Assembly (NCBI GenBank): GCA_930367205.1
Contig: CAKNEZ010000003.1
Location: 62,001 to 126,000 of the forward strand
From: Acanthosoma haemorrhoidale
Taxonomy: Eukaryota; Arthropoda; Insecta; Hemiptera; Acanthosomatidae
Length of the DNA: 64,000 nucleotides
Direction: 5' to 3'
A model generated the notes under the pieces. That model did no database searches, was not told where the DNA came from, and saw only the letters and a list, made by a program, of their open reading frames with translations. A program made the position numbers and the translations under genes. Positions within the stretch are counted from its first letter, which is position 1, and each line of letters begins with the position of its first letter. Below, piece after piece: positions 37,404-52,466 of the stretch.

Positions 37404-37423
37404 TATATATATATATATATATA

Positions 37424-37736: not shown

Positions 37737-37878
37737 TCCCCCCTTTTTGAGACAGAGGGTAAAGCCCTTTGGAATTAAGCACGAGCTTACTAGCATGAAA
37801 TAAGTTTGACTCCTTTTTACGAAATCTACTATCTATTAAAAATAATATCTCTGAGATTTTCTGTTTTATTTTGAAAGG
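37737..37878 (-). pseudogene. Third Gypsy copy: 3' end of pol
   Basis: Matches 13227-13371 of the complete copy with small indels that break the frame. It ends at the provirus insertion, GAAAGG at 37873-37878 being the left target duplication. Confidence 0.88.
37873..37878 (+). repeat. Left 6-bp target duplication of the provirus
   Basis: GAAAGG, repeated at 52216-52221. The uninterrupted target is seen in the complete Gypsy copy (GAAAGGTCCTACT near 13365). Six-base duplications are typical of Polintons. Confidence 0.93.
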
Positions 37879-38155
37879 AGTAGAGGTAATTCGGGAAAAG
37901 AGCAGGGAGGATGGTGTTGCATGGTGGGGGAAACCGGTTTTCTATTGTGTTCTGATGTGAAAATGACGGGGCTCGGTGTTCGCTAGACCCGCACGACATG
38001 GTTTTAATTAATTTAAAGTTATGCGAAGCCTGTTAAGGTATGTGGAGTTGTAAATATCAAAAGTTAATCGTCGATGAGTATCGTTTATTACGACTTGTAA
38101 TTTTACTTTTTCTTCTCAGTATATAATGGGACAAGTAATGAGTAAGACTCGAAGG
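37879..38155 (+). repeat. Left terminal inverted repeat (277 bp)
   Basis: Pairs with 51939-52215; the only difference I find is at 37964/52130. It carries a possible leader exon, a candidate intron (38038-38119), and the ATG and first ten codons of the BIR gene. Confidence 0.96.
38038..38119 (+). other. Candidate 82-bp leader intron in the left inverted repeat
   Basis: Donor AAG|GTATGT at 38035-38043; acceptor after a pyrimidine tract (TTTTTCTTCTCAG) ending at 38119, six bases before the ATG of the BIR gene. The mirror copy is at 51975-52056 on the minus strand. This is a prediction only. Confidence 0.5.
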
Positions 38156-38455
38156 AGTAAGAACTTGAGATATGAGGAAGATCGTCTTTCTACATTTGTT
38201 GGATGGAAATCGCCGGTAAGTGTCGTTAAGCTCGCAGCAGCGGGATTTTATTATTTGAAACAATCGGATTTAACGAGGTGTCCTTTCTGTGGAGTGATAT
38301 TACACGAGTGGATGGAACATGATGATCCTTTAGTAGATCACAAGAAATGGTCTAATTATTGTCCGTTTATCGACTACCTGGATCAATTAGAAAAGCTCCC
38401 GTTGATAACAATAGATGAAGTTGATTATAAAAAAGAAACCAGTTGTTGTTGTTGA
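38126..38455 (+). CDS. Viral BIR-domain protein with N-myristoylation motif
   Basis: 109 residues from ATG 38126. The single BIR zinc domain spans about residues 18-82: RLSTFVGW, LAAAGFYY, then Cys52, Cys55, His72 and Cys79, the exact C-x2-C-x16-H-x6-C pattern of inhibitor-of-apoptosis proteins. There is no RING domain. The N-terminus MGQVMS fits the Met-Gly-x-x-x-Ser rule for myristoylation and is followed by basic residues, suggesting membrane attachment (inference). The first ten codons lie in the inverted repeat. It ends in CCC. It may block host cell death, or be a zinc-binding structural protein. A coiled-coil frame overlaps its end (38415-38597). Confidence 0.85.
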   Translation: MGQVMSKTRRSKNLRYEEDRLSTFVGWKSPVSVVKLAAAGFYYLKQSDLTRCPFCGVILHEWMEHDDPLVDHKKWSNYCPFIDYLDQLEKLPLITIDEVDYKKETSCCC

Positions 38456-38456
38456 T

Positions 38457-38597
38457 ATGCACAAGAGACTCGAGCATTACCTTCATCGACTTGAGGATTT
38501 AAAAATACAAATTAAAATCTATGAAAAAAGAAGATGTGAAATAAATCAACTAGTAAAAAAAATAGAACAACTTCATCTATCCCCACCTCTCTGTTAA
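38457..38597 (+). CDS. Small coiled-coil protein next to the BIR gene
   Basis: A frame open from 38415 overlaps the end of the BIR gene in another frame. An ATG at 38457, two bases after the BIR stop codon, gives 46 residues. It is rich in Leu, Lys and Glu with heptad-like spacing (HKRLEHYLHRLEDLKIQI). It may be a separate small gene or the displaced C-terminal part of the BIR protein after a slip in the nearby A run (38429-38434). I cannot tell which. Confidence 0.4.
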   Translation: MHKRLEHYLHRLEDLKIQIKIYEKRRCEINQLVKKIEQLHLSPPLC

Positions 38598-38629
38598 ATA
38601 TTTTAGTCTCAACGTTGAAGCCTAGCAAG

Positions 38630-39226
38630 ATGGAGGGTCCACGACGATTGGAACTAGTGACTGATTACCACATCACTAGTAGTAAACTAGTCCGAGTCGG
38701 TCTTTGTGATTTTGTGCCCACTGTCGCTGTCATCGATAAGAAAACTACAGTGTATATGGACACAGAAGAATGGAAATTCATCGTCGACCAAGTTCCAAGG
38801 ATGTTGTCTCTTTTCCAAAGCAGGCCCAAGAAAGTGGAGGTTGAAGACCGAGTAGGATGTAAAAATGTATATTGCATATTTTCCAAGAGAGGGAGGAACA
38901 GGATCATGAAAATTGAACAGGTAGTTCTTTGTTTCGCAATGTTTAACCAGAGTCCATTAACCCTTCAGCTGAATACACCTTCGGCATGTTTCAACAAAAA
39001 TGATGTGACAAAGCTTTGTAGAGACGTTAAGAAAATCAACGAATCATTGGACTTGATAACCAAGATGGCTGAACTCTACAAGAAAAATGAAGAAGACGTA
39101 GAACCTGTGGAATCTACATCAATGGACTTTAATATTAATACTAATACCCTTTTTAATAATTTAAATGAACTCGAGAAAATGTGTAATAATACCCACGTAA
39201 ATTGTAATTTGAACTATATTCAATAA
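38630..39226 (+). CDS. Provirus protein of unknown function
   Basis: I chose ATG 38630 (AAGATGGAGG, a fair initiation context) over the upstream TTG; this gives 198 residues. It has no domain I know. The N-terminal 130 residues look like a mixed alpha/beta globular protein with scattered Cys; the C-terminal third is helical, then Asn-rich (NINTNTLFNN). It ends 4 bases before an AATAAA-type poly(A) signal at 39223-39232. It is co-directional with the BIR gene, so possibly an early or host-interaction gene of the virus (inference from place only). Confidence 0.7.
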   Translation: MEGPRRLELVTDYHITSSKLVRVGLCDFVPTVAVIDKKTTVYMDTEEWKFIVDQVPRMLSLFQSRPKKVEVEDRVGCKNVYCIFSKRGRNRIMKIEQVVLCFAMFNQSPLTLQLNTPSACFNKNDVTKLCRDVKKINESLDLITKMAELYKKNEEDVEPVESTSMDFNINTNTLFNNLNELEKMCNNTHVNCNLNYIQ

Positions 39227-39380
39227 ATAATTGTTATGTCTATACATTTTTTTTTTGTTTTTTTTTTTGAACCTATCCCTAAGTAAAAAGGAAAATAAAG
39301 GTAAATAAAAAATTTTTTTTTTTAATTTTTATGGTTTATTTGAAATAAAACATGAATAAATTATAGATATAATATTGCAA
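39227..39380. terminator. Convergent 3' ends with poly(A) signals
   Basis: AT-rich; several AATAAA on the plus strand (near 39225, 39292 and 39303) and TTTATT (AATAAA on the minus strand) near 39338. Rightward and leftward gene clusters end here. No other gene seen. Confidence 0.6.
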
Positions 39381-39602
39381 TTAATAATAAGTAGAGTCTT
39401 CATCAATGTAGGAATGTCTTCGTATCTGGATAAATTCCTCGTCATTTTGCCATTCCTCAGGTAAGTTGTTCCAGATTTAATCCAATGTACAGTTCAAAAC
39501 GTACAAAAGCAACGAGCGAGGTAAAATTCTCAGTTCTTCAGTAGTTAAAGTTCCTATGCCTTCCTCTCCCAAGCGACGGATTACAGTCTCTAGTCTGTCC
39601 AT
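39381..39602 (-). pseudogene. Small broken gene after the second BIR gene
   Basis: ATG at 39602, 35 bases downstream of the stop of 39638-40330. The frame encodes 41 residues (MDRLETVIRRLGEEGIGTL at the start) to a TAA at 39477-39479, then reads on open to a final TAA at 39381. Amino-acid use on both sides of the internal stop looks coding (WNNLPEEWQNDEEFIQIRRH). So it is a small gene with one nonsense change, two tiny genes, or a sequencing error. Function unknown. Confidence 0.4.
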
Positions 39603-39637
39603 TATCAAAGTGATGATGTCAGATCCTTCCGTTCCTT

Positions 39638-40330
39638 TCATAAATAATACTCCTCCTCAAACCACAAGCACTGAGGACGACTCTTCCTATGGTACTTGAG
39701 AGGGTTGATTAGTGATTTGGAGTCATAGACCAGTCCACAGTATACACAATTAACATTATCCTTGACTCCGCGTATAAATCCTGCAAACGACAGCAGATGA
39801 TGAGACGAGTCGATGTTTCTAAATGATTGCTTACGTACCTCTTCTTTTTTGAAATTTATAGCCTCAGAATTTTTTCTGATCCATGTAGCCAATCGATGGG
39901 CTTGATTTAATGAGCAAACAAAGGAAGTGTTCAAATGAAAATCACATGCAATCTTATCATTTTCTAAAATTTTCAAGTTTGGACAGCCGAAATCATGGAG
40001 ATCATAGACTGGTTTATCGATAAGTTCTTCTATAAAATGACATTTTTCCCCTCCTTTCCCCCATAATGTGTCAAAGTCTTCCGTGATGGATAGTAAGAAA
40101 TATTTCATATCCTCATATGGTACATCACCATAGTTCCATTCCAGTCCGTGAATATGTTTCTTTACCCAAAGATTTGTTTTCGACTCACCCACTTCTCCAG
40201 CATCTCGAGGTGGTTTGAAAAACCAATGCCACGATGAACCATGGCTGATGGAGATTACAGATAGTTCTTTAATGATCAATGAGTTAGAAGCCGAGCGATA
40301 GCCCTGAAAATCAATGACCGCCGAACGCAT
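39638..40330 (-). CDS. Fusion of a Polinton FQGF/KEL-type protein with a BIR-like domain
   Basis: 230 residues from ATG 40330. The N-terminal part begins SAVIDFQGYRS and has KELSVIS, an HGLEWNYG block and a FGCPNL block. These belong to a protein family I recall from many arthropod mobile elements; a nuclease-like fold has been supposed but is not certain. The C-terminal part (about 150-225) has FAGFIRG and then Cys195, Cys198, His214 and Cys221: C-x2-C-x15-H-x6-C, one residue shorter than a standard BIR. A TATA-like CTATATATAG lies at 40388-40397, 58 bases upstream. It is the sixth gene of the leftward virion cluster. Confidence 0.75.
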   Translation of the reverse strand: MRSAVIDFQGYRSASNSLIIKELSVISISHGSSWHWFFKPPRDAGEVGESKTNLWVKKHIHGLEWNYGDVPYEDMKYFLLSITEDFDTLWGKGGEKCHFIEELIDKPVYDLHDFGCPNLKILENDKIACDFHLNTSFVCSLNQAHRLATWIRKNSEAINFKKEEVRKQSFRNIDSSHHLLSFAGFIRGVKDNVNCVYCGLVYDSKSLINPLKYHRKSRPQCLWFEEEYYL

Positions 40331-40387
40331 TATATGCTTGAGTCAATGTCCTACGGTGAAGTGATATTTTTGCAGTCGACTTAATCT

Positions 40388-40397
40388 CTATATATAG
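40388..40397 (-). promoter_or_regulatory. TATA-like box before the 40330 gene
   Basis: Palindromic CTATATATAG between the capsid stop (40412) and the ATG at 40330. It may start a separate transcript for the BIR-fusion gene. Confidence 0.45.
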
Positions 40398-40411
40398 ATG
40401 TATGTGCTGTT

Positions 40412-41629
40412 TCAGTACATTTTACGGACCAAACCGGTTCCCACCTCATATTCTACAATTTTATCGTGAAGAATAAGGCAGTAAGCCTTAGTATTTGCCG
40501 GAAAGTTCTCACCCGCCTCTAGTAATGCACGAATATCAATAGTCGTACTTTTTATTGCTTCAGATTGTTTAGAACAATCAATGATGGCTATAGGTGCAAA
40601 TGTCTCAAAATCAGATCGTGACAGTAGAGGCTGAGAATGCCTACTATTATAATAACTCTCTTGAAACTCAGCATACATTTCGTAGAGGAGAGCCACTTTT
40701 CCTTGTGCAAAATCTAAATTCAAATCGTCATAAGGATATTGTTCGCTATTCAGGTAGAGTTTCAAATTTTTCAATTTGCAACTATCAAACTGACTGCTGT
40801 CTTTGGTAGCGTTTCTCGTTCGATCAGTCTGGAATGCTATAATAACATAGCGCGGCTTTTCTAAATTTGTCGATGTTTTGACAGTCCAATTTTCCTGCTG
40901 TGTTGCAGGCAAACTAGGGTATTCGTAAAGATCCCATGATCGAAACGGAATTGATATGACCTTGTTTTTGTCAACCATCTTCAGCAATCTCAGACGTTCT
41001 TGATCAGAAACACGAACATGAGGCATCTTCCAAACCACTTTGTCCAATTTTATTTGGACGTTATCATCGCCACCCTTCACACAGTTCAAGTCCGTACTCG
41101 ATCGAATCAAAACGAGTTCCTGCTTAAGATTTATTAAAATTTTTCTATAGTCCTCACATATTCCTAAGAGAATATCCAGGGGCAGGCATGCGCTGAAAAA
41201 TCCGTTTTTGTCTAAGGAAAGAGTATTGTTGACACCGGGCATCGTCCACCCCGCATTTTCTAGTCCTTTGACATGAGTAGGTGAAAATGATGCATGACCT
41301 TTAAGCGTTGTAGTTATTCCAGGATTTCTCACTCTATCAACTTCAATGCCATTCAATTCATATCTAATCTCATCAAACAAAAACGCAAACGCGTTATTAG
41401 TCAATTTTGAAGTAGCTCCAGGAGTACCATCTTTTTTTAAAATTCGTCCTTCAAGATAAACATAACTTAATGAAGGAAACGTGTAGACATCTTGTTGATG
41501 TACAGGTATTCTGATTTCGTCGGACCTGTTAAAGGTGTTCCCCGCATACGGCTGATGTGAATGATACTGGAATTGCGTAAGGGAATCGTCAAATTTTATA
41601 TCTGATGTAACGCTTAGTATGTTATTCAT
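40412..41629 (-). CDS. MCP: Major capsid protein (double jelly-roll, hexon-like)
   Basis: 405 residues, ATG at 41629, overlapping the stop of the small gene before it (ATGA). It matches the conserved Polinton/adintovirus hexon: the N-terminal block QFQYHSHQPYAG, LFDEIRYELNGIEVDRVRNPG (first jelly roll), then DRTRNATKDSSQFD, KLKNLKLYLNSEQYPYDDLN and LYEMYAEFQESYY (second jelly roll), ending with AYCLILHDKIVEYEV and VRKMY. It would form the trimeric capsomers of an icosahedral particle assembled in the nucleus (family inference). No stop or frameshift is seen. Confidence 0.93.
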   Translation of the reverse strand: MNNILSVTSDIKFDDSLTQFQYHSHQPYAGNTFNRSDEIRIPVHQQDVYTFPSLSYVYLEGRILKKDGTPGATSKLTNNAFAFLFDEIRYELNGIEVDRVRNPGITTTLKGHASFSPTHVKGLENAGWTMPGVNNTLSLDKNGFFSACLPLDILLGICEDYRKILINLKQELVLIRSSTDLNCVKGGDDNVQIKLDKVVWKMPHVRVSDQERLRLLKMVDKNKVISIPFRSWDLYEYPSLPATQQENWTVKTSTNLEKPRYVIIAFQTDRTRNATKDSSQFDSCKLKNLKLYLNSEQYPYDDLNLDFAQGKVALLYEMYAEFQESYYNSRHSQPLLSRSDFETFAPIAIIDCSKQSEAIKSTTIDIRALLEAGENFPANTKAYCLILHDKIVEYEVGTGLVRKMY

Positions 41630-41781
41630 TTTTTCTTATTTTGTAACCGAAAACCGCACTGTTTCAAAAAGTTAGCGTTTGCACTTGTTAACTGTCTCGT
41701 CAATTTAGGATTACTAATTCTTAACATGGCTTGCTCTCTCCTTTTATAACGAGCTACACTATTATTCTGCACACCATCCAT
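41626..41781 (-). CDS. Small basic protein between penton and capsid genes
   Basis: 51 residues, ATG at 41781, 7 bases after the penton stop; its TGA overlaps the capsid ATG (ATGA). It is rich in Arg, Lys, Asn and Gln (ARYKRREQAMLRI; ending LQNKKK) with a run of likely helix. The tight fit between two virion genes argues that it is real. It may be a small core or cement protein, comparable in size and charge to minor core peptides of adenoviruses, but there is no sequence proof. Confidence 0.65.
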   Translation of the reverse strand: MDGVQNNSVARYKRREQAMLRISNPKLTRQLTSANANFLKQCGFRLQNKKK

Positions 41782-41788
41782 GGTAAAA

Positions 41789-42496
41789 TCAATCCCCATT
41801 TTTCTTCAAATGTATTCTCAATGTAACAGTTTCTCCCCTAAAGTCAATAAGTTCTCCGCCTTGATCCACTAACCGAATGGTAATATTGCCAACAGTCCTC
41901 ACGTTAGTAGGAAAGTAAATGATAGGATTCGGGGTTTCTATTATTTTATATCCTGGTTCTACAGCCGGAAAGAATTGATGTATGCTATGATCCGGATCTC
42001 CATTGACGTAAGACCCTGATGCGATGTTACAATGAATCGAAATAGTGTTTACAGAAAGAATTTTCACAATGCCATCTGATTCGCTGTACCGATGCACTGG
42101 GTTAATGACTTGATTGGGACGATGAAAACCCAGCAGTGGACCAATAGAATGGGGCTTGTCGGGGAAGTTGAAGTAGACCGGCTTCGTTGTTCTAAGTTCA
42201 GCCTTTAAAGTATTCTGATTTCCTCGCAGCATAAACCCCCCACCAGGTTCCTGGTGATCAATTTCGGCGCGAAGAAAAGTATTTAGAGCATCGATATCAT
42301 ACGATCCTTCAGGTATCTTGATCGTCGAATTTCCAAAATAAAACTTATCGTTAACATCCTTTCTTATATTAGGAATAGTATTATATGTGTCAAAAGATAA
42401 TAACCCAACTGTATAACTTGAGCCTAATTCCAGCGGAGGTAAAAAGTTTGCATGAAGAACACTAGAATTTCCCGTAAACGTTACTGTATAGCTCAT
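41789..42496 (-). CDS. Penton (single jelly-roll minor capsid protein)
   Basis: 235 residues, ATG at 42496, 12 bases after the protease stop. Motifs typical of Polinton pentons: SSVLHANFLPPLEL and YTVGLLSFDTYNTIPN at the N-terminus, IKIPEGSYDIDALNTFLR in the middle, and TVGNITIRLVDQGGELIDFR and VTLRIHLKK at the end. The protein would form the fivefold vertices. Order protease-penton-capsid agrees with other members. Confidence 0.9.
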   Translation of the reverse strand: MSYTVTFTGNSSVLHANFLPPLELGSSYTVGLLSFDTYNTIPNIRKDVNDKFYFGNSTIKIPEGSYDIDALNTFLRAEIDHQEPGGGFMLRGNQNTLKAELRTTKPVYFNFPDKPHSIGPLLGFHRPNQVINPVHRYSESDGIVKILSVNTISIHCNIASGSYVNGDPDHSIHQFFPAVEPGYKIIETPNPIIYFPTNVRTVGNITIRLVDQGGELIDFRGETVTLRIHLKKNGD

Positions 42497-42508
42497 TATT
42501 ATGAATGA

Positions 42509-42856
42509 TCAAAATTTATGAGAAACGTCAGCTAAATACTTTAAGCAGAGATGTCCACAAATCGGAGTATTCCACTTCTGATAACGAAGTCTGTTGTAAG
42601 TTATTTGTAAACCTTTAAAGTAATCAAGTAGCTGTGGTGGTGGTTTCAAATTTCCAAACGAATCAAAGTATTTCACAAGATTATCTTTTTTTATATAACA
42701 AACCCAATGAGAACCAGGTTCTGAACTTGTATGCAAATTTACAATAGCTGTCTCATGCTTTTTTGGATATTTAGGGAGACTATCAATCATGAATACTCCA
42801 CGAAAATTTTCAATATTTAAAACTTTAGCTATATGATTTAATTCAAGATCGCTCAA
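42509..42856 (-). CDS. Adenain-like maturation cysteine protease
   Basis: A 115-residue frame with the catalytic set of the adenovirus protease family: His50 in GSHWVCY, Asp65 in KYFDSFG, Gln93 and Cys100 in YQKWNTPICGHLC; the seven-residue step from Gln to Cys equals that in adenain (115 to 122). The frame as it stands begins with TTG (42856). The nearest upstream ATG (42875), which overlaps the stop of the preceding gene as ATGA, is out of frame; a tandem TGAC repeat lies between them. So this copy may have lost its normal start or may be read by another means. The role is cleavage of virion precursor proteins during maturation. Confidence 0.88.
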   Translation of the reverse strand: MSDLELNHIAKVLNIENFRGVFMIDSLPKYPKKHETAIVNLHTSSEPGSHWVCYIKKDNLVKYFDSFGNLKPPPQLLDYFKGLQITYNRLRYQKWNTPICGHLCLKYLADVSHKF

Positions 42857-42871
42857 CGGTTTATTCGTCAG

Positions 42872-43639
42872 TCATATTGTTCTCGACCTTTTTTGTCGGT
42901 TTATAAACAAACCGTAACCATTCTTATATGGTTTCAAATAAAGTCCGTTACCAACTTTCTGACCTTCTATGGCCAAATTATGCCTCTTTTGCTCATCCAA
43001 TTTTAGCTTGGCTTCTTTAGCCTCATTGACCGCTTTCGCTACACTTGCGGCTCCTCCAGCCAAAGATCCCACAGCGGAAAGTCCTGCCATCAACGGTACA
43101 AGAAATTGGAGAAAGCCCCCCTCCTTTGGCAGCGGGAGAACTCTGGGCGGTAAAGGTTTTGTCTTACCACGTAGATGCATTTTAGCCTTCTTATATGCCA
43201 CCTTTGACGCGTTCAGAATAGATGATACATCATCTACTTTTGATGATTTAACCAAGTCAATGAAGATAATCTTCTTCTTCTTTTTCTTTTTTAAACCTGA
43301 TCCAATTTTTCTTTTCGCTTTCATGGCATTTGTAACTAACCAAGCCGCGGCTTTTTCTCCCCATGACGAATCTGAAGCTTTAACTCGTTTCCAAGCATTA
43401 TCAGCTAAGATTTTGTCTGCTTCCTTACGACTATCCATATCTTTATATTTGCTATAAGCTATATCGTGGTCTTTACAGGCTTTATCAAGCTGATTTATTC
43501 CACTATCACCTTTAGTTAGTCGCTTTTCTAGATCCGTACCAGGACCACAATACTGATAGCCCGGAAGATGTAATTCAATAGGCAACTTGTTTATAAAACT
43601 GTTCACTAGTCCTCTTCCTTTGTGAGCTTTACGAATCAT
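42872..43639 (-). CDS. Virion protein with phospholipase A2-like domain
   Basis: 255 residues, first gene of the leftward cluster. The N-terminal domain (about 24-75) has the calcium loop YCGPGT (30-35) and the catalytic His58-Asp59 pair in CKDHDIAY, as in parvovirus VP1 and adintovirus PLA2-like proteins. A lysine run (about 117-124) may act in nuclear entry or DNA contact. A hydrophobic Gly/Ala-rich segment (about 177-208, FLVPLMAGLSAVGSLAGG) looks membrane-active, followed by an acidic-basic helix and a basic end. Expected role: breaching the endosomal membrane during entry. Glycine-flanked sites in the C-terminus could be cut by the maturation protease (inference). Confidence 0.88.
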   Translation of the reverse strand: MIRKAHKGRGLVNSFINKLPIELHLPGYQYCGPGTDLEKRLTKGDSGINQLDKACKDHDIAYSKYKDMDSRKEADKILADNAWKRVKASDSSWGEKAAAWLVTNAMKAKRKIGSGLKKKKKKKIIFIDLVKSSKVDDVSSILNASKVAYKKAKMHLRGKTKPLPPRVLPLPKEGGFLQFLVPLMAGLSAVGSLAGGAASVAKAVNEAKEAKLKLDEQKRHNLAIEGQKVGNGLYLKPYKNGYGLFINRQKRSRTI

Positions 43640-43693
43640 ACTGTACTAAGAAAATGAAGAACAGACTTATATATCTATATATACTGAAGCATA
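43640..43693. promoter_or_regulatory. Divergent late-type promoter region (54 bp)
   Basis: Between the ATGs of the PLA2-like gene (minus) and the packaging ATPase (plus). It holds TATATATCTATATATA (43668-43683), two TATA-like boxes readable from both strands. It probably drives both virion clusters. Confidence 0.6.
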
Positions 43694-44416
43694 ATGCCGT
43701 CGTTTGCATTCAGAATGAAATTAGTCAAACAAGAACAACGTTTTTCCACTATCGACTTTTCACCAGTTAAAGTTGATTCAGAAGGAAGACATAGTGCATT
43801 ATTACCGAACACCATTCGAGCATCAATTTGCGGACCTAGCGGTTGTGGAAAGACTAATATTATTATTGCACTTTTATTAAATCCAAATGGTTTAAAGTTT
43901 AAAAATGTTTATCTTTTCGGAAAAACATTACATCAGTCTAAATATCAGTATTTAAAGAGTGTCATAAATCTTGTTCCTGAAATAGGATTATATGAATTTG
44001 AAGATGCGAATGAATCGCCTCAGGAAGTTGAATCCAATTCGGTCTGTATATTCGATGATGTCAATATGGAAAATCAAGATGTAATTAAACGGTACTTTAG
44101 CTATGGTCGTCATATGAACCTTGATTGTTTTTATTTAACACAAAGTTATGTTTGTATCCCAAGACACCTTATCAGATGTAACATTAACTTTTTAATAGTA
44201 TTTCCTCAAGATGAATTAAATTTGAAACATATTTACGAGGAGCACGTAAGCACTCCGGATTTAAGTTTCACACTTTTTAAAGAGATGTGTTCATTATGTT
44301 GGAAAGAGCCTTTTAATTACATTGTAATTGACAAGAGTAGGGACCTGAACAATGGACGTTTTCGAAAAGGAATCGATACATTCATTGTAGATATATATAA
44401 AGAGCAGTCGTGGTAG
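43694..44416 (+). CDS. Packaging ATPase (FtsK/HerA, A32-like)
   Basis: 240 residues from ATG 43694. Walker A GPSGCGKTN at 47-55, Walker B SVCIFDDV at 116-123, and a sensor-like YLTQSY after SYGRHMNLDCF. Length and motifs agree with genome-packaging ATPases of Polintons and adintoviruses. It would pump genomic DNA into the capsid. No breaks. Confidence 0.93.
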   Translation: MPSFAFRMKLVKQEQRFSTIDFSPVKVDSEGRHSALLPNTIRASICGPSGCGKTNIIIALLLNPNGLKFKNVYLFGKTLHQSKYQYLKSVINLVPEIGLYEFEDANESPQEVESNSVCIFDDVNMENQDVIKRYFSYGRHMNLDCFYLTQSYVCIPRHLIRCNINFLIVFPQDELNLKHIYEEHVSTPDLSFTLFKEMCSLCWKEPFNYIVIDKSRDLNNGRFRKGIDTFIVDIYKEQSW

Positions 44417-44434
44417 TAATTGTCATTAACAACC

Positions 44435-45574
44435 ATGGACCCAAAAGTCACTCGTGAGATTATAAAAACTAGTGAGATTTTGAAAAACAAATTTCGGTCA
44501 TTGAAGCGTACTCTCCAGGATGTTGAAAAAGGTCGGCAAGATTTTTTTACACCCGTGCTCCAACCACTAGAAGACATTAAACAATCAGTAAAGTTGTACC
44601 AGACCAAATTGGAACCCCCAGTGACGCCAAAAAAAGTAAAAAGGAGAGATACTAATGTTTGGGACGAATCACCTGATAAAAGCGAGATAGAGTCTACTAG
44701 TATTTACAGAAAATCAACATTATTACCAAAAACAATGTCTCACTACAAAAGAGCTACAACAGTTTCATCCGATGATACAAAAACTAGTACTGTGCAAACA
44801 CCATTATCTCACTTAACGGTTCCCGTTCATGAGTTCATATCACCAGAAGTAGATGAGGGCGAGTATGTGACAGACGATCCACTATCAGAAAAAGTTAAAG
44901 AATATGCTCAAACTCCAAAGGGAGAAGCAGAATTTAAAGAGCGTCTCGCCGCTTTTGGAAATCTACAGAGAGAATACTTGGATAAGATGTTGAAAGGTGA
45001 TAAGACACACGACTCTCGTTACGGCATTAGAGTCATGCCTTCTGGGGGATTAGCCATTGGTGACTCGACTGATGTTCAGCTTTTCGAGAACAGTGACGAT
45101 ATGTCTATTAACGATGTGGTTTATGAAGGAACATCGGGATTGCTGGAGCTACTCTACTTAAAAAATCCTAAAGATTACACAGAGTCGGACTTGGATAATT
45201 ATAAGAATATTTTACTCTCGACCAATGCTCACAAGAGAGGATATAGTGAGGAACAGGGGGTATTAGGAAATAGATCCGATAAATATAGAAATATAATATC
45301 GAAGTTATTTCCATCGCAAACTTTGAAACAACGCCCCCCTTCCTCCGCTTCATCAGCTTCGAGCAGGCTAACTTCACTCCGTTCTTACACTTACAAACGG
45401 GGCACTGGTCTTATGAGAGCCAATAAACCCTTGTACGAGTATTGGAACGACCCTAACGAACTTGTTGATCGACTAAGGCTGTTAATGTCTTCAACTCATG
45501 CCGGACATGAAGGACACCAAAACGAAATAGAATCAATTATTGAAGAGCTGCGAGAAGAAAATATCATATATTAA
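44435..45574 (+). CDS. Conserved Polinton protein of unknown function (DUF8207-like)
   Basis: 379 residues. I take ATG 44435 (AACCATGG, good context) rather than the TTG 15 bases earlier. The N-terminal 70 residues are Lys/Glu-rich and likely coiled coil; the middle is Ser/Thr-rich. The conserved block at about 190-260 has YGIRVMPSGGLAIGDS, YEGTSGLLELLYLK and YKNILLSTNAHKRGY, which I recall from many arthropod mobile elements as a domain of unknown function (the number is from memory). The C-terminus has a basic, Ser-rich stretch and a tail with YWNDPNELVDRLRLL. The place after the ATPase suggests a virion core or minor capsid protein. Confidence 0.75.
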   Translation: MDPKVTREIIKTSEILKNKFRSLKRTLQDVEKGRQDFFTPVLQPLEDIKQSVKLYQTKLEPPVTPKKVKRRDTNVWDESPDKSEIESTSIYRKSTLLPKTMSHYKRATTVSSDDTKTSTVQTPLSHLTVPVHEFISPEVDEGEYVTDDPLSEKVKEYAQTPKGEAEFKERLAAFGNLQREYLDKMLKGDKTHDSRYGIRVMPSGGLAIGDSTDVQLFENSDDMSINDVVYEGTSGLLELLYLKNPKDYTESDLDNYKNILLSTNAHKRGYSEEQGVLGNRSDKYRNIISKLFPSQTLKQRPPSSASSASSRLTSLRSYTYKRGTGLMRANKPLYEYWNDPNELVDRLRLLMSSTHAGHEGHQNEIESIIEELREENIIY

Positions 45575-45608
45575 CGCTCACATTTTTATATTCAGATTCA
45601 GTACAAGC

Positions 45609-46049
45609 ATGACGATAAACAAGTTCGGATCCCACATAGCGATAAAGCATTCAAAGTACAAAAAACGTTATTTTCCCTTTAGCTTATTAAAGTCTGAAAA
45701 GGATATCGATGCGGAACATTTACGAATAATCAATATTGCAAATCCAGTCTCTGCTCGCGACGCTGCCAATAAAGTGTATTGTGATAATTTAGCATTTTAC
45801 TATACCGATTTAAAAAATTGGCCTGGTAATTATATAGATGGAAAAGGAAAAAGACTGGTAAACTTTGCACAACCTAAAGATGGATCTGATGTTGTTACCA
45901 GAAAATATTTAAACACCGTTGCTTTAACTTTGGTTGCGAATGAGTATGACTGTGCTGGCAAGAAAATAGCAAACGTTGGTGAGCCTGCAGAGGAAGCTGA
46001 TGTGGTCACGCTCGGTTATCTTAACAAATTACTTAAAAAGAAGTTATAG
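45609..46049 (+). CDS. Small protein with three phage-fibre-like repeats
   Basis: I choose ATG 45609, giving 146 residues; an upstream start at 45540 would lie inside the previous gene. It has three copies of a motif of the form Asn-[Ile/Val/Phe]-[Ala/Gly]-x-Pro-x4-Asp-[Ala/Val]-[Ala/Val]-x3-Tyr-[Leu/Cys]: about 41-59 (NIANPVSARDAANKVYC), 85-102 (NFAQPKDGSDVVTRKYLN) and 122-139 (NVGEPAEEADVVTLGYLN), 43 and 37 residues apart. This pattern is common in the stalks of tailed-phage fibres, where it links trimeric segments. A receptor-binding or vertex-spike role is possible. The stop is followed at once by the ATG of integrase (TAGATG). Confidence 0.75.
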   Translation: MTINKFGSHIAIKHSKYKKRYFPFSLLKSEKDIDAEHLRIINIANPVSARDAANKVYCDNLAFYYTDLKNWPGNYIDGKGKRLVNFAQPKDGSDVVTRKYLNTVALTLVANEYDCAGKKIANVGEPAEEADVVTLGYLNKLLKKKL

Positions 46050-46985
46050 ATGAATTCATCATTGATAAAAAGAACTGTTGTTGACGAATTACACAAGCCG
46101 GCTCGGAAGATATATCCCCGGCGAAAGACAGTTTTAAAAGGAATAAATGATTTGTGGCAAATAGATCTTGTAGAAATGATACCTTATTCTCGAGAAAATA
46201 AAGGTCATAAATATTTATTAACAGTTATAGACTGCTTTTCGAAATACGCTTGGGCTGTGGCACTAAAACAGAAAACAGCGGACAACGTGGTCAAAGCGAC
46301 GGAGAGTGTGTTTCTATCGAGTAAACAATCTCCAAAAAATATTCAAAGCGATCAGGGAAAGGAATTTTACAATTCAAAGTTTAATTCTCTGATGAAAAAA
46401 TACTCTATTAATTATTATTCTACTTTTTCCTCAATAAAGGCTTCCATTGTGGAGAGATTTAATAGAAAATTGAAAGCTAAAATGTGGAAAACATTCAGCT
46501 TACTAGAAAATTACAAATTCTTAGATATTTTACCTCAGATCCTGCTAGATTACAATACCTCATTTCATTCAACCATAGGTATAAGACCAATCGATGCCCA
46601 CAATAAAAAATCTGAAAAGTACTTGTTAAAAAATGTGTATTCGTCCATAACCAAATCAAATGTACAAAAGCAGAAGTTTGAAGAGGGCGATTTTGTCAGG
46701 ATATCAAAACAAAAGACAATATTTTCAAAAGGCTATACACCAAATTGGTCGAGTGAAATATTTAAAGTAGTCATGGTTCAGAAGACGTACCCGTACACAT
46801 ATCAACTTGAAGATCTGAAAGGGCAACCTATCAGTGGTTCCTTTTACGCTGAAGAGCTTCAAAAAGTAAAACATCCAGATGTATACCTTGTAGAAAAGGT
46901 TTTGAAAAGAAAAGGAAATAAATTATATGTAAAGTGGTTGGGATTGGAGGAACGCAGTTGGATCAACAGGAAGGATATTGCATAA
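46050..46985 (+). CDS. Retroviral-type integrase with C-terminal chromodomain
   Basis: 311 residues from ATG 46050. RNase H-fold core with Asp39 (WQIDLVE), Asp101 (SDQGKEF) and Glu135 (VERFNRK); I count 33 residues between the last two. An SH3-like segment (GDFVRISKQK) follows, then a chromodomain at about 275-311 (VYLVEKVLKRKGNKLYVKW). No HHCC zinc domain is seen, as usual in Polinton integrases of this type. It would insert the linear genome and make the 6-bp duplication. The chromodomain may steer insertion to marked chromatin. No breaks. Confidence 0.93.
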   Translation: MNSSLIKRTVVDELHKPARKIYPRRKTVLKGINDLWQIDLVEMIPYSRENKGHKYLLTVIDCFSKYAWAVALKQKTADNVVKATESVFLSSKQSPKNIQSDQGKEFYNSKFNSLMKKYSINYYSTFSSIKASIVERFNRKLKAKMWKTFSLLENYKFLDILPQILLDYNTSFHSTIGIRPIDAHNKKSEKYLLKNVYSSITKSNVQKQKFEEGDFVRISKQKTIFSKGYTPNWSSEIFKVVMVQKTYPYTYQLEDLKGQPISGSFYAEELQKVKHPDVYLVEKVLKRKGNKLYVKWLGLEERSWINRKDIA

Positions 46986-47278
46986 TGTTTGGAAGAAAAA
47001 AAAAAAAACATTTATATTTGACATTTATTTTTTGTTACTACATGTTTTTCTTACATTAATAAATTTTTTACAATAATAATGATTATATTTATTTTCCCAA
47101 TCACCATACACTCTAGTTCTAATACAAAAAATCTAATGCTTTTTACATAATTGATGTCCAAGGTTACAAATTGTAATGTGACTTCATTGATTAAAATAAT
47201 TTTTTACAATACAATAAATAAATTTCTATGGTTACATGTTGTAATGTGACTTATAATTGGAACAGCGTCTTAATTGAT
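46986..47278. terminator. Convergent 3' ends of integrase and polymerase genes
   Basis: A-run at 46997-47008, AATAAA near 47059 (plus) and TTTATT (minus-strand AATAAA) near 47215-47222. No coding frame. Confidence 0.5.
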
Positions 47279-50200
47279 TCACTCTAACTTTTCTTTACTT
47301 AAGTGATGACCATATGGAACAGTGTCGATCCCATTTTCTAATGTAAAACGTTTATCATCTAAACCATTTAAAGAAATTTTGTTAATTAACACTGTTTGTA
47401 CACGATGTTTCTTTGATTGAATAGCTTGAAACGATGAATGCATGCTTTCATTGGAATGTAATATTTGTTTATAATTTTCAAATGTAAATTCATTTACAAC
47501 ACATGTTTTTACCCCTTTTGCCTTTCTTATTACATTGCAAGTATTTGTAATATAAGAATACATCTTCGGTCTCAAACCTACAAATTCTACTATCGGATCT
47601 CCTGCGGTTTCATCCTTTAATAAACCAACAACCTTTTTATTTCCACAGGAATAGCAATGATGTGAATGAGGGTAATTGCTAGTATCAAAATACTTACACA
47701 AGTCATTTTTAATATCATCGTAAATATCATTGGTTTGTATTTGATATATGAAGGAATCTGTATCAGTGTAACATAATTTTATATTTTCTATACCATATTT
47801 CTTTATAAACACATTATAATGGTAATCATACATCAAAGTTTTGCTCAATTCTAATATTGCAAAACCAACATAAATTGGTTTGTTAAAAACAATTTTTTCT
47901 TTTTCCAAATGAACTGCTATAACATTTTCAGCGAATATCTGTCTATCTTTAAAGTTTGATTTGTTGACAAGTTTATTTAATTTGGACTCGGATGTTACTA
48001 ACCGTATGTCTACGCGATTGCGGATGTTTTCCATACTCTTACCAAACACGCTGTTAACCATAAGTTTGTAAAAATCTGACTCAAAGGTTGTTTTAGCATG
48101 AGATCTATGTTGTGAATTTACATCAATATATGGCACTAGCCATTTCTTTTGTCTGAATTTTAAAATACGATTAATCTTCTCTATTTTCAATCCGAGTTTT
48201 ACTGCCTGTTTTAAATTTTCATAATGTATAATATAATGAGACTTTGAGAGTAGTGTAGTCATTAATTTATTATATTTACTTCGAGGTGGAGTCCTCGCTT
48301 CGGGTAGTAATGGAAACTGAGAATGAAAATCATGAAATTCCAGAGGATAGGAGATATCGACATCTAGTATATAACCAAATTCAGAGTTTTCGGGGATCTC
48401 TAATACATTAATATCATCTTCTACCCATTCAAAATTATCATATGGAAGAGATTGAGCCATCGCATAGCCATACAAATTGTTTACATCTACATAAAGTATG
48501 TAACTATTTGCTTTATCGGGGTTATAGTCATTAATGTAGGGGTTATTTGCTTTAGCATGTCGAGTAACAACTTGGACAAGACCACCTCGTAGTCCCTTTT
48601 CAATAAAGAGAATCATATCCAAATCTTTCAACAACGCAAGTTTTATTTTTGTCATTCGCAACATTGCATTCCATGCTAATTGTGGGAGTGTATAACACCA
48701 AGCAGGATCTAATCCATATATCTTTAATGAAAGGCTTCGGAAAGTTTCGAACACTTCACAAAGCAAAATTACATCGGTCTTAATATAAAGTTCTGTATAT
48801 TCTTTCATATTTTTAATGTGAAATGTTGACCAAACTAATTGTGCATGTGTGTAATCTTTATCACTAATGTGTTTGTTAGTTAGTGAATTATAAAAACTAT
48901 CCTGTTGAGGTAATTGTGTTTCTTCAAGTTTATCATAAGACTCCATATAATTATATGGATAGATACCTTTTTGACTGATTAATGAAAGTTTGTATTCATC
49001 GCTTATGAACTGTTTTAAATGTGGAAATGTGTGACAGAGGTTTACAGATTGAGATTTCATATTGTTAACTAAAGTTTCTAAACTAGATGATAAAAATTTA
49101 TATGAATCAAGAAATCTGATTTTAGTTTTACAGCCGTCAAAGGTTTTAGTGACAGACATATATTTTTCACTATTGCTCGGAATTATTTCAACATTGCCTT
49201 CATCTATTCCAAGATATTTAACTATAAAGTGAGAATCAAAATTAGTAAAATTGTGTATAAACACGGGTATAAAGTCTGGTTTACTAGCATGTAAATTACA
49301 TGAGTTGTGTGCAGCCCCAATAAACTTAGATGTGATGTGACAATGATGTTTTACTCTCTCTCTCTTATCCAATTCATTCTCGCATAAAACACATATATTC
49401 GTAGTAGCGAACGACTGTTCTTGTTCATGACTCAATGTTTCGATTGGAATTATATTAGCATATATTTCATCGGCTTTAAGAGCTAAGGATTTTAATGTTT
49501 TCATGAAATTGCTCATGCAATTGCTACCGGTGTGAACAACTGGATCGCTGTCAAAATCGGGAATAGAATATTTTACCATAAGTGCTGCACAGAAAACTTC
49601 ATGGCTTTGTAAAGAACGTGTCCAAGATGTTTGAGGATTCGGATTTGAACCTGCGATGGGCACTAATAATGTTTCGAAATCGGCATACGCTACAATTTTA
49701 ATATTCTGTGTAAATTCAACATTTTTGAATGTAATATAATTATCTTTAGGAACTTCAGATCTAACGGGTCTATGTTGTTTGCAAAATAGTTCATGATCTT
49801 TTAAGCGTTCAAAAGCATTTTGTCCTTTACGCGTAATATAGTCTTTCGAATAATATTTAAAGCATCTGCGACACATCAGATAGGAATGATGACCACGAGT
49901 GATTTGTGAGTACACTAGTTTCGGTAAGTTGACTATTAAACAGTAGTGGCTATTATTATCTTGTTCCATGAATAGAATATCGAAGCATTCCTTATAAATT
50001 TCTTTTTTACTGATTCGTAAAGGATAAAGTTTATTTTTATCATCTAAAGCAAATACATTAATAGATACATTGTTAACTTTTTCAAATTTTGAAATGTCTT
50101 TAAATGATGTGGGATATGAAATGCCATCAAAAGAATAAATACCCTGTATATTGTTATAAGAATTTGGATCGTTGGAACCGATAACTTTACTTAAAATTGC

Positions 50201-50983
50201 TAGTCGGAAACAATCATCACTATCTGTATTTTTTACATTAATTACCGCATGTTTATTTCGAATACTTTTTGGGAGCGCTATGAATCTGTTGGCATTCAAG
50301 GGTGTATATTTTGTTAAGTGCAAACAGAGATAATTTGCAGATACGAAAATCCATCCTGATCCCCTCCCCATAAAATCATCTATTTCTGATAAGATTTTCT
50401 GAAATGAGTCTATTATAAATTCTTCTAAGTTACTAGATTTGTCTAAAGTTTCCATTTTTGTTTTAAAATTAAAATCAGTGTGCTCGATTTCTTTTCCCTC
50501 AACACTTTTTTTATAATTACATTCTAATAAGATCATAATTTTTATAGTATTCCACCTCATAATATATTTATTCAAAATGTTATTTAATTTATTTTTAACA
50601 TTATCAAGAAATTCGTTTGGGATATAATTAACCTTATCATTTTTAATATAAATGTCTGCAAGCGTCTCGTTGATAGCCGTTGTAATAATAATATTGTTTT
50701 CATCTGATGTTGATTGTTCCCGTAAGCATTTGTCAAATACTATATATTTTCTTTTTTTAATCGAAGGATCGGACCGGGACTGCATTTGTTTCGATACGTT
50801 CACCTCTTTCTCTATGTTTAATTTGAGAGCAACGCATGTTTTTATATGTCTTTTATAATTTTGTTGACTGCATTCTCTACCACACATTTTACACAACATA
50901 TATGACCATTTACATTTATGTTTCCAATTGTTTAGTAAAAGTCCACATTTTGTACATAAGTATGTATTTCTAAAGGTACTCAT
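47279..50983 (-). CDS. polB: Protein-primed DNA polymerase B
   Basis: 1234 residues from ATG 50983, uninterrupted. By approximate residue: zinc-finger-like Cys/His pairs 8-52; Cys-rich segment MCRRCFKYY near 370-380; exonuclease motif I YADFETLL near 434; a recombination endonuclease VII-like zinc motif (CVLCENELD, HHCHI) near 530-550; exonuclease II HNFTNFDSHF near 579; exonuclease III YIKTDVILLCEV near 735; polymerase motif A YVDVNNLYGYAMAQ near 833; motif B KLMVNSVFGKSMEN near 975; motif C CYTDTDSF near 1074. This is the Polinton type of family B polymerase, which replicates linear DNA from a terminal protein. It is convergent with integrase, which also fits the group. Confidence 0.95.
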   Translation of the reverse strand: MSTFRNTYLCTKCGLLLNNWKHKCKWSYMLCKMCGRECSQQNYKRHIKTCVALKLNIEKEVNVSKQMQSRSDPSIKKRKYIVFDKCLREQSTSDENNIIITTAINETLADIYIKNDKVNYIPNEFLDNVKNKLNNILNKYIMRWNTIKIMILLECNYKKSVEGKEIEHTDFNFKTKMETLDKSSNLEEFIIDSFQKILSEIDDFMGRGSGWIFVSANYLCLHLTKYTPLNANRFIALPKSIRNKHAVINVKNTDSDDCFRLAILSKVIGSNDPNSYNNIQGIYSFDGISYPTSFKDISKFEKVNNVSINVFALDDKNKLYPLRISKKEIYKECFDILFMEQDNNSHYCLIVNLPKLVYSQITRGHHSYLMCRRCFKYYSKDYITRKGQNAFERLKDHELFCKQHRPVRSEVPKDNYITFKNVEFTQNIKIVAYADFETLLVPIAGSNPNPQTSWTRSLQSHEVFCAALMVKYSIPDFDSDPVVHTGSNCMSNFMKTLKSLALKADEIYANIIPIETLSHEQEQSFATTNICVLCENELDKRERVKHHCHITSKFIGAAHNSCNLHASKPDFIPVFIHNFTNFDSHFIVKYLGIDEGNVEIIPSNSEKYMSVTKTFDGCKTKIRFLDSYKFLSSSLETLVNNMKSQSVNLCHTFPHLKQFISDEYKLSLISQKGIYPYNYMESYDKLEETQLPQQDSFYNSLTNKHISDKDYTHAQLVWSTFHIKNMKEYTELYIKTDVILLCEVFETFRSLSLKIYGLDPAWCYTLPQLAWNAMLRMTKIKLALLKDLDMILFIEKGLRGGLVQVVTRHAKANNPYINDYNPDKANSYILYVDVNNLYGYAMAQSLPYDNFEWVEDDINVLEIPENSEFGYILDVDISYPLEFHDFHSQFPLLPEARTPPRSKYNKLMTTLLSKSHYIIHYENLKQAVKLGLKIEKINRILKFRQKKWLVPYIDVNSQHRSHAKTTFESDFYKLMVNSVFGKSMENIRNRVDIRLVTSESKLNKLVNKSNFKDRQIFAENVIAVHLEKEKIVFNKPIYVGFAILELSKTLMYDYHYNVFIKKYGIENIKLCYTDTDSFIYQIQTNDIYDDIKNDLCKYFDTSNYPHSHHCYSCGNKKVVGLLKDETAGDPIVEFVGLRPKMYSYITNTCNVIRKAKGVKTCVVNEFTFENYKQILHSNESMHSSFQAIQSKKHRVQTVLINKISLNGLDDKRFTLENGIDTVPYGHHLSKEKLE

Positions 50984-51156
50984 CTTTTATTCATAATCCT
51001 TATATTATAATCCTTAATTATTATGATGCTTACTTAGACTGCTTTGTGAAATTTGATAATATGACTTCTCTTTATTACACCCTCATATGATAAAGTGAGA
51101 TCGCCTAAAACAAATGTTAGAGTTAATTTAAGAAATACATTTTTTTTTTTTTATTC

Positions 51157-51405
51157 TTATATTTTTGCATACTTACCACTCTTATATTGTTGTATATCCT
51201 CATCAGATATGCAATGAAGATAGCGTTCGGGAAGAAACGTTTTAATTAAAAATCCGTTTTCCTTTGAATCTAATATTACTTGTAGACAATCGCCATGTTC
51301 TGTTTTAGTTTTTGCAAAATGTGTTATCAAATATTTTTCACCTTGTTCTAGTTCTCCAATTCTTTTATAAACGGGTAAACTGTTTAATTTTTCGATCATG
51401 GACAT
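51157..51405 (-). CDS. Small protein, possible OB-fold single-strand DNA binding protein
   Basis: ATG at 51405 gives 82 residues. Sequence upstream of this ATG on the minus strand is TTTCCTTTTCAG, a strong splice acceptor, so longer versions of the frame are probably intron. The blocks LPVYKRIGELEQGEKYLITHFAKTK, CLQVILD and TFLPERY resemble a short beta-rich domain that I recall from many arthropod mobile elements, probably an OB fold. Its position, directly upstream of polymerase and in the same direction, suggests a replication role. Confidence 0.65.
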   Translation of the reverse strand: MSMIEKLNSLPVYKRIGELEQGEKYLITHFAKTKTEHGDCLQVILDSKENGFLIKTFLPERYLHCISDEDIQQYKSGKYAKI

Positions 51406-51893
51406 CTGAAAAGGAAACCAGTAGGTTGAGTAAGGAAAATTAAAAAAAAAAATTTTAATACTTATTAAATTGTAATTCCTTACCAATTACTTTTTACTAG
51501 TCTATTATTTACGATATGCTTTACTTATTCACAATCGGCGTTATCTAAGAAACAAATAACATACTTACGATTGCTGTATAAAAGCTTCCACACCTGTGTG
51601 AGGAATAAAATTTTCCAAGGGCTCTTATACTCCTTTTCCTGAGAAGAGGGGGAAACCATAGCTATTAATTTATATTTTGACATCTGCTTTATATTCTCAC
51701 AATATTAATTTCTTACCTTTGGACGCCAGAAGATTCTTATCTTCACACATGTAATCCAGTAACATTTAATCATCAACGATGTAAATCTCCAGTTTATAAA
51801 CTCATGTATGACACAGAACGATATTAAAATTTTATTTTTATTTTTATTTTTTTTTTTTAATATCTGCTCAACATTCGTATGTAAGCCTTGAGA
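51406..51893. promoter_or_regulatory. Leader region of the polymerase side
   Basis: No gene seen. On the minus strand there are a TATA-like GAGTATAAGAG (near 51625-51635), donors GTAAGT (near 51567) and GTAAGA (near 51715), and the acceptor at 51406-51417. A TATAAAAG is readable on the plus strand near 51578. The leader is probably spliced into the 51405 gene. Confidence 0.4.
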
Positions 51894-51968
51894 TTAATGA
51901 ACAACATCAATCCCCTTCGAGCCGCCGCAGCCGGTTTGCCTTCGAGTCTTACTCATTACTTGTCCCAT
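51894..51968 (-). CDS. 24-codon frame starting in the right inverted repeat
   Basis: Same ATG and first ten codons as the BIR gene (MGQVMSKTRR), then 14 unrelated residues and a stop. The mirror promoter and intron of the right inverted repeat would express this leader. It may be a useless by-product, an upstream frame, or a first exon; no donor is clear at the end. Confidence 0.35.
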   Translation of the reverse strand: MGQVMSKTRRQTGCGGSKGIDVVH

Positions 51969-52215
51969 TATATACTGAGAAGAAAAAGTAAAATTACAAG
52001 TCGTAATAAACGATACTCATCGACGATTAACTTTTGATATTTACAACTCCACATACCTTAACAGGCTTCGCATAACTTTAAATTAATTAAAACCATGTCG
52101 TGCGGGTCTAGCGAACACCGAGCCCCGTCTTTTTCACATCAGAACACAATAGAAAACCGGTTTCCCCCACCATGCAACACCATCCTCCCTGCTCTTTTCC
52201 CGAATTACCTCTACT
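51939..52215 (-). repeat. Right terminal inverted repeat (277 bp)
   Basis: Reverse complement of 37879-38155 with one mismatch. A protein-primed origin is expected at the outer end (family knowledge). The mirror intron lies at 51975-52056. Confidence 0.96.
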
Positions 52216-52466
52216 GAAAGGTCCTACTCAGATCGCATCTAATGTATCACTATTCAATTTGTTACTGTTTTGTACATATACAAGGTCTTCAACTTCGTAT
52301 TCAAACTTTTTAACATTTTTATTATAATACTTTTTATTTTGGTTATGTGTCTCTTCTGAGTTTTTATAAGCTATTTCCCTATTATTTTCTAAATCTGTAA
52401 TTTTATTTTCATTTAGTTCATCAGGTACAAATGATGCATCTATTCCAGTTAATAAGTAATTGGGGG
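52216..52466 (-). pseudogene. Third Gypsy copy: integrase C-terminal part
   Basis: Starts with the right target duplication GAAAGG (52216-52221). It matches the complete copy from about 13365 to 13616, with the frame mostly open on the minus strand (52228-52479). It is cut at a G run (52462-52466) by the solo LTR. Confidence 0.9.

What the first reader, a model, noticed from the sequence alone, without database searches (positions are those of the whole stretch)
37879..52215. A complete, apparently intact Polinton/adintovirus provirus
All hallmark genes (PolB, integrase, ATPase, protease, penton, capsid) sit between inverted repeats that differ at 1 of 277 bases, with a 6-bp duplication. The core genes have no stops. 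Seen directly: termini, duplication, motifs. Established: this gene set defines Polintons and adintoviruses. Inferred: insertion was recent and the element may still be able to form particles.
Basis: partly seen in the sequence, partly recalled or inferred. Interest (0 to 1): 0.9.

Follow-up and report, generated by a model that had tools for sequence, protein, structure and literature searches.

The report
Near-intact insect Polinton/adintovirus provirus
A virus-like DNA element of a known family (Polintons, also called adintoviruses) sits almost undamaged in what looks like an insect chromosome, carrying two cell-death-blocker-like genes and a phage-like fibre gene; it is a good new member of a known kind rather than a new kind.

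Summary
A 14,337-bp element (37879-52215) has 277-bp inverted repeats with one mismatch and a 6-bp duplication, GAAAGG. The insertion is proven at base resolution: a second copy of the target, a Gypsy element in the same window, matches the joined flanks through the junction (194 of 200 bases, no gaps). Capsid, ATPase, integrase and PLA2-like genes are supported by Pfam. PolB is supported by 1,295 homologues, one of the 120 listed being a named adintovirus PolB. Penton and protease rest on position and motif; single-sequence models of both were unusable. It is a new member of Polintoviricetes/Eupolintoviridae (formerly Adintoviridae); its nearest relatives are unnamed contigs, 88% (capsid) and 86% (PolB) identical. 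Extras: two BIR (IAP-like) proteins and a small protein with phage-fibre/YadA-stalk repeats. 'Intact' is only partly supported: the protease frame has no ATG before residue 23, whereas an ATG start could be assigned to the other 12 of 13 ORFs. Host, copy number and activity could not be tested (genome search did not complete).

The parts
37873..37878 (.). target-site duplication, left copy (GAAAGG)
37879..38155 (+). left terminal inverted repeat, 277 bp; contains the first codons of BIR1 and, by inference, its promoter
38126..38455 (+). BIR1: 109-aa single-BIR (IAP-like) protein, no RING found; begins inside the TIR; MGxxxS N-terminus and C-terminal CCC (lipidation is inference)
   Evidence: Pfam BIR 9.7e-19; 'Apoptosis 1 inhibitor' BIR 53.9 bits
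38630..39226 (+). ORF2, 198 aa from its first ATG, unknown; length within the range of chance
   Evidence: no significant family; shuffle control
39638..40330 (-). BIR2: 230 aa, unknown N-terminal part and partial C-terminal BIR
   Evidence: Pfam BIR 5.9e-6, profile positions 18-69 of 70
40412..41629 (-). major capsid protein, double jelly roll, 405 aa
   Evidence: PF21738 1.6e-119; 1,728 homologues, best 88%; no significant PDB sequence hit
41789..42496 (-). probable minor capsid/penton protein, 235 aa
   Evidence: position, size and order only; no family hit; single-sequence model pLDDT 30, unusable
42509..42856 (-). probable adenain-like cysteine protease, 115 codons from the first start-type codon, which is not ATG; first in-frame ATG is codon 23
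   Evidence: motifs by eye; no significant Pfam/PDB hit; model pLDDT 42, unusable
42872..43639 (-). PLA2-domain protein with basic/hydrophobic C-terminal part (membrane-active capsid core candidate), 255 aa
   Evidence: PF08398 2e-15; sub-threshold Adeno_PX 0.098
43694..44416 (+). A32/FtsK-type packaging ATPase, 240 aa
   Evidence: PF04665 1.4e-7
44435..45574 (+). unknown 379-aa protein (from its first ATG)
45609..46049 (+). fibre-like protein, 146 aa from its first ATG, three stalk repeats of phage T7 tail-fibre/YadA-stalk type
   Evidence: PF03906 4e-12, 3 stretches; 3 homologues of 24 candidates; 4 of 4 members match PF03906, 1 of 4 YadA_stalk
46050..46985 (+). RVE integrase with chromodomain-like C-terminus (by eye), 311 aa
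   Evidence: rve 3.5e-16; solved integrase chains from 1.1e-7, chains named PFV integrase from 4.3e-7
47279..50983 (-). DNA polymerase B of the protein-primed Polinton type, 1234 aa
   Evidence: 1,295 homologues incl. Ladona dragonfly adintovirus PolB 42%; 11 chosen motif columns invariant in 21 of 21; no relevant Pfam or PDB hit of its own
51157..51405 (-). small ORF, 82 aa from its first ATG, unknown; could be chance
51939..52215 (-). right terminal inverted repeat; repeats the start of BIR1, giving a 24-codon ORF (51968 downwards)
52216..52221 (.). target-site duplication, right copy (GAAAGG)
12897..13617 (.). uninterrupted second copy of the target (Gypsy element), i.e. the empty-site equivalent; the hexamer is 13366-13371

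Best explanation
It is an integrated genome of an insect-type Polinton/adintovirus (class Polintoviricetes, family Eupolintoviridae, formerly Adintoviridae). Shown: a linear element with near-identical inverted repeats was inserted by staggered joining (6-bp duplication) into a Gypsy retrotransposon copy; it encodes polymerase, integrase, packaging ATPase and double-jelly-roll capsid in open frames. Inferred from the family: protein-primed PolB copies the linear genome from its ends, the RVE integrase inserts it, ATPase and protease package and mature a DJR capsid, and a PLA2 protein breaches membranes. Inferred here: a trimeric fibre made of phage-type stalk repeats stands on the capsid and binds cells, and one or both BIR proteins blunt host apoptosis early in infection, BIR1 being driven from a promoter inside the terminal repeat. 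The insertion is recent; whether this copy is competent is undecided because the protease frame has no ATG before residue 23.
For: TIR and duplication; gap-free empty-site match; Pfam MCP, ATPase, integrase, PLA2, BIR; PolB homologues and motif columns; 2 of 21 PolB members match DNA_pol_B_2 and 15 of 21 Endonuclease_7; MCP and PolB trees place it in supported clades with unnamed close relatives; 13 ORFs covering 82.7% of the element; fibre family; BIR1 alignment with BIRs of 'Apoptosis 1 inhibitor' and 'Baculoviral IAP repeat-containing protein 1'.
Against: PolB itself has no relevant Pfam hit even at E=10 and none in PDB sequences, alone or as a 21-row profile. Protease and penton have no significant sequence or usable structural support. 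Protease frame has no ATG before residue 23. PolB homologues include corals and molluscs as well as insects, so the insect label rests on the capsid hits and the surrounding transposons. No second copy, transcript, particle or host identity could be examined (16 unanswered genome-search runs). Roles of BIR and fibre are inferred from domains.
Confidence: 0.9

Rival explanations
1. A recently dead copy (a sub-case of the best explanation): the provirus integrated lately but the protease no longer starts properly, so no mature particles can come from this copy; PolB and integrase could still move it as a transposon.
For: The protease is the one ORF of 13 to which no ATG start near its beginning could be assigned; the ATG that overlaps the preceding gene's stop lies in another frame.
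Against: For 4 of the other 12 ORFs the ATG was simply the first one inside the listed frame, so the contrast is soft; capsid, PolB and fibre are nearly full length against their nearest relatives, 2 gap runs each; non-AUG start, reinitiation and splicing were not tested.
Confidence: 0.45
2. A transposon that no longer makes virions: capsid genes are kept only because the insertion is young.
For: It lies in a nest of transposable elements; no particle evidence.
Against: MCP relatives at 88, 86, 77, 75 and 63% identity in unnamed contigs keep lengths of 402-410 aa, which fits selection on the capsid across the lineage; codon-level selection was not measured (no nucleotide sequence of close relatives).
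Confidence: 0.15
3. The host, not the virus, uses it: a domesticated provirus.
For: BIR genes could serve a host.
Against: Both ends, integrase and PolB are present and open, and the insertion lies in a transposon nest.
Confidence: 0.03
4. Assembly artefact or contaminant virus contig joined to insect DNA.
For: Not checked with reads.
Against: 6-bp duplication on both sides and gap-free empty-site match in a paralogous Gypsy copy.
Confidence: 0.02

Closest known systems
Insect adintoviruses/Polintons (Eupolintoviridae), e.g. Ladona dragonfly adintovirus and Drosophila-associated adintoviruses 1-3
   Same: Drosophila-associated ones: 13.3-14.6 kb; number 1 encodes PolB, integrase, capsid, protease and FtsK homologues (PMC8363768, passages). 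Ladona: PolB 42% over 99% of the region
   Different: Ladona PolB lies outside the supported 8-row group of the window in a 21-row tree; two BIR proteins and a phage-type fibre, which I could not compare with those genomes (not fetched; Starrett 2021 not held)
Intact vertebrate Mavericks
   Same: TIR, 6-bp duplication, open core genes; TIR and element length within the published 46-1,447 bp and 12.7-24.6 kb (PMC8097293, passages)
   Different: Gene order differs from the vertebrate plan described there; the terminal hexamer is AGTAGA, not (AGT)2 or (AG)3
IAP proteins with BIR domains (Apoptosis 1 inhibitor, i.e. Drosophila DIAP1 as I recall; baculoviral IAPs, recalled)
   Same: BIR zinc signature CX2CX16HX6C in BIR1 (read by eye); 53.9 bits to Apoptosis 1 inhibitor
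   Different: One BIR and no RING found in BIR1; BIR2 has an N-terminal part without family
Phage T7 tail fibre N-terminal domain / YadA stalk; bacteriophage-like fibres of polinton-like viruses of protists (PMC12220804, passages)
   Same: repeats of the trimeric stalk type
   Different: only 146 aa, no recognisable receptor-binding head, in an animal-type element

Membership tests
Polintoviricetes / Eupolintoviridae (Polinton, Maverick, adintovirus) | DNA polymerase B of the protein-primed type | tested here: met
   homologues incl. one named adintovirus PolB; 11 motif columns, chosen by me from recalled motifs and the invariant list, invariant in 21 rows; protein priming itself not testable
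Polintoviricetes / Eupolintoviridae (Polinton, Maverick, adintovirus) | RVE-family integrase | tested here: met
   rve 3.5e-16, solved integrases from 1.1e-7
Polintoviricetes / Eupolintoviridae (Polinton, Maverick, adintovirus) | double-jelly-roll major capsid protein | tested here: met
   PF21738 1.6e-119
Polintoviricetes / Eupolintoviridae (Polinton, Maverick, adintovirus) | single-jelly-roll minor capsid (penton) | tested here: inconclusive
   ORF of right size and place; no family hit, model unusable
Polintoviricetes / Eupolintoviridae (Polinton, Maverick, adintovirus) | A32/FtsK-type packaging ATPase | tested here: met
   PF04665 1.4e-7
Polintoviricetes / Eupolintoviridae (Polinton, Maverick, adintovirus) | adenovirus-type cysteine protease | tested here: inconclusive
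   motif by eye, no significant Pfam/PDB hit, model unusable
[quoted passage not shown]
Intact (potentially active) Maverick as defined in PMC8097293 | conserved intronless ORFs undisrupted, plus TIR and TSD | tested here: inconclusive
   no internal stops in 13 ORFs, but protease without ATG before residue 23; the paper's PW, PM and PZ genes not tested
Intact (potentially active) Maverick as defined in PMC8097293 | common vertebrate end motif (AGT)2 or (AG)3 | tested here: not met
   ends begin AGTAGA; a vertebrate feature, not a family-wide one as far as I saw
IAP (BIR) proteins | complete BIR zinc domain | tested here: met
   BIR1 covers profile 1-69 of 70; BIR2 only 18-69
IAP (BIR) proteins | binding of IAP-binding motifs or caspase inhibition | not testable with these tools
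   needs binding or cell assay
Trimeric fibre | stalk repeats of phage tail-fibre/YadA type | tested here: met
   no relevant PDB sequence hit; trimerisation and virion location not testable

The most novel reading that the evidence does not exclude
A still-circulating insect adintovirus lineage that spreads between hosts as virions, uses a minimal fibre built from phage-type stalk repeats, and carries two IAP-like proteins that suppress insect apoptosis, with the left-end IAP gene switched on from a promoter duplicated in both terminal repeats. The relatives at 86-88% identity in other samples would be its sister viruses.
Probability: 0.3. Interest if true: 0.6.

Novelty: new member of a known kind. 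Interest (0 to 1): 0.42.

Why it matters
Whether Polintons are transposons or viruses is a long-running question; a young, nearly undamaged copy in a probable insect, with exact ends, a proven empty site and infection-type genes (fibre, PLA2, IAP-like), is a good subject for testing it. The BIR genes would tie an insect Polinton to the same arms race over apoptosis that baculoviruses fight (recalled). But the kind of element and the idea are already in print.

Tried and rejected
Assembly join: rejected from the duplication and the empty-site match. Second Polinton remnant in the window: none found by tblastn at E 0.01; the 13 proteins match only themselves, apart from the integrase against two stretches of retrotransposon integrase. 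Relatives with DNA context: MCP alone, PolB alone and the MCP alignment in viral contigs gave none; the PolB alignment gave 2 loci of 80 pattern matches, at 35-36%, too far to judge the protease; fibre alignment and BIR1 gave none; the MCP alignment in genome contigs gave none. Structure predictions of protease and penton from single sequences were too poor to use, so no fold search was run. Rfam and tRNA scans of the window: 0 matches. Endonuclease_7, zinc-finger and Rho_N labels among PolB homologues and weak hits of ORF2 were not followed. Dating: with a recalled insect mutation rate of about 3e-9 per site per generation, one TIR mismatch would be roughly half a million generations with a very wide interval; not used as evidence.

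Print search: IAP/BIR or fibre with Polinton, Maverick or adintovirus (25 of 665 papers listed; 16 of 16; 15 of 25; 5 of 5; 4 of 4; 12 of 47). In those listings and the passages opened I saw no BIR/IAP gene reported in an insect Polinton, but three of the listings were capped. [quoted passage not shown] PMC4061559 (passages) guesses that bidnavirus NS3 is an apoptosis inhibitor unrelated to IAPs; PMC4642659 (passages) says some Polintons encode PLA2-like lipases. The key paper, Starrett 2021, is not held, so absence from print is not claimed.
Full report
What is there. The element spans 37879-52215 (14,337 bp). Its ends are 277-bp inverted repeats with one mismatch, flanked by GAAAGG on both sides. 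The termini read 5'-AGTAGAGG, close to but not identical with the (AGT)2 hexamer reported for vertebrate Mavericks (PMC8097293, passages).

Empty site. The left flank matches the low-coordinate LTR end of a Gypsy-type retrotransposon elsewhere in the window, and the right flank continues into that element's coding part. Joining the flanks with one hexamer gives a sequence that aligns through the junction to 12897-13617 at 93.2% over 723 bp, and at 194 of 200 bases without a gap around the junction, where that copy has GAAAGG once. The insertion and its exact ends are therefore shown, not inferred. The target is a Gypsy copy whose pieces lie at 37412-37878, 52216-52467, 58420-58878 and 63766-64000; non-LTR elements lie in the other gaps, so it looks like a nest of insertions (inference).

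Genes. Pfam names the double-jelly-roll capsid (1.6e-119), a PLA2 domain (2e-15), a poxvirus-A32-type ATPase (1.4e-7), BIR in two proteins (9.7e-19 and 5.9e-6) and an RVE integrase (3.5e-16). PolB has no relevant Pfam hit and no relevant PDB sequence hit, but 1,295 of 5,840 candidates are homologues: the best is 86% identical, the first named one is from Rhodnius prolixus (46%), and the one listed hit with an adintovirus name, Ladona dragonfly adintovirus PolB, is 42% identical. Of 21 aligned PolBs, 2 match DNA_pol_B_2 and 15 match Endonuclease_7; the window's own matches neither at E 0.01. Eleven positions of the exonuclease and polymerase motifs (names recalled, positions chosen with the invariant list in view) are invariant in all 21. 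The protease and penton assignments rest on gene order, size and motifs read by eye; profile, PDB (protease only) and structure attempts gave no support either way.

Placement. The MCP search scored 1,728 homologues of 4,438 candidates. For trees I took 16 of the 120 listed MCPs and 20 of the 120 listed PolBs. The window groups with unnamed contigs (MCP: P0007 and P0008, support 98; PolB: P0135, support 100), and Ladona PolB lies outside the supported 8-row group that holds the window. The family Adintoviridae is now Eupolintoviridae (PMC12451622, passages). The element belongs to this known kind.

Extras. (1) BIR1 (38126-38455) begins inside the left repeat, so its first codons, and any promoter there, are duplicated at the right end, where they yield only a 24-codon ORF. 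Its BIR aligns with 'Apoptosis 1 inhibitor' (53.9 bits) and, over three BIRs together, with 'Baculoviral IAP repeat-containing protein 1' (109 bits; best single domain 47). Its N-terminus fits a myristoylation signal (inference, motif recalled). (2) BIR2 (39638-40330) has a partial BIR at its C-terminus. (3) The fibre-like protein (45609-46049) has three stalk repeats of the phage T7 tail-fibre type (4e-12), matches several phage tail-fibre families, best 9.1e-9, and has 3 homologues of 24 candidates, all in unnamed contigs. It is less conserved (108 of 145 identical to its nearest relative) than capsid (354 of 402) or PolB (998 of 1,232 over the whole length), as a receptor-binding part would be, though the three relatives need not be the same virus.

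How far intact. The 13 ORFs have no internal stops (partly by construction) and cover 82.7% of the element; the 1,235-codon run exceeds every one of 100 shuffles (maximum 199), while the shortest unknown ORFs do not exceed chance. An ATG start could be assigned to 12; for ORF2, the 379-aa protein, the fibre and the 82-aa ORF it is the first ATG within a longer listed frame. The protease frame follows the PLA2 gene's stop in the same frame, its first ATG is codon 23, and the ATG that overlaps the PLA2 stop lies in another frame. Without relatives' DNA I cannot tell damage from a non-AUG start, reinitiation or splicing. The claim that all core genes are intact is thus open for the protease.

Host. 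Not identified. Named capsid relatives among the 120 listed are bugs, a beetle and an ant, and the neighbouring non-LTR elements carry DUF4780 (that it is typical of insects is recalled). Named PolB relatives are mostly insects but include corals and molluscs. Search of the host assembly did not complete (16 calls), so copy number, other insertion sites and polymorphism are unknown.

Verdict. A real, recent, well-bounded Polinton/adintovirus provirus of a probable insect: a new member of a known kind with unusual accessory genes. A complete insect-associated adintovirus of 14,567 bp (PMC8363768, passages) and 134 intact vertebrate Mavericks (PMC8097293, passages) are in print, so the find is good but not surprising.

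Noticed in passing
12909-17594: Gypsy-type LTR retrotransposon with a 1,347-aa ORF and LTRs identical over 319 bp, so itself probably very young; a copy of the same family hosts the provirus.
   Followed up: partly
52504-55491 and 58876-61867: Two non-LTR elements 97.8% identical, with RT/RNase H ORFs and DUF4780 ORFs beside them, lying in other gaps of the same Gypsy copy.
   Followed up: partly
51600-51968: Right TIR repeats the first codons of BIR1, yielding a 24-codon ORF with a myristoylation-like start; a remnant or a duplicated promoter end.
   Followed up: partly
51157-51405: Small 82-aa ORF near the right end, unknown family.
   Followed up: no
L001, L002: Two IMG/VR contigs (15.6 and 13.5 kb held) with PolB at 35-36% to this one; L001 also has integrase- and ATPase-like matches, L002 a PLA2-like one.
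   Followed up: partly
62081-62445 and 63393-63757: Inverted pair of 365-bp stretches 99.7% identical in the retrotransposon-rich right end.
   Followed up: no
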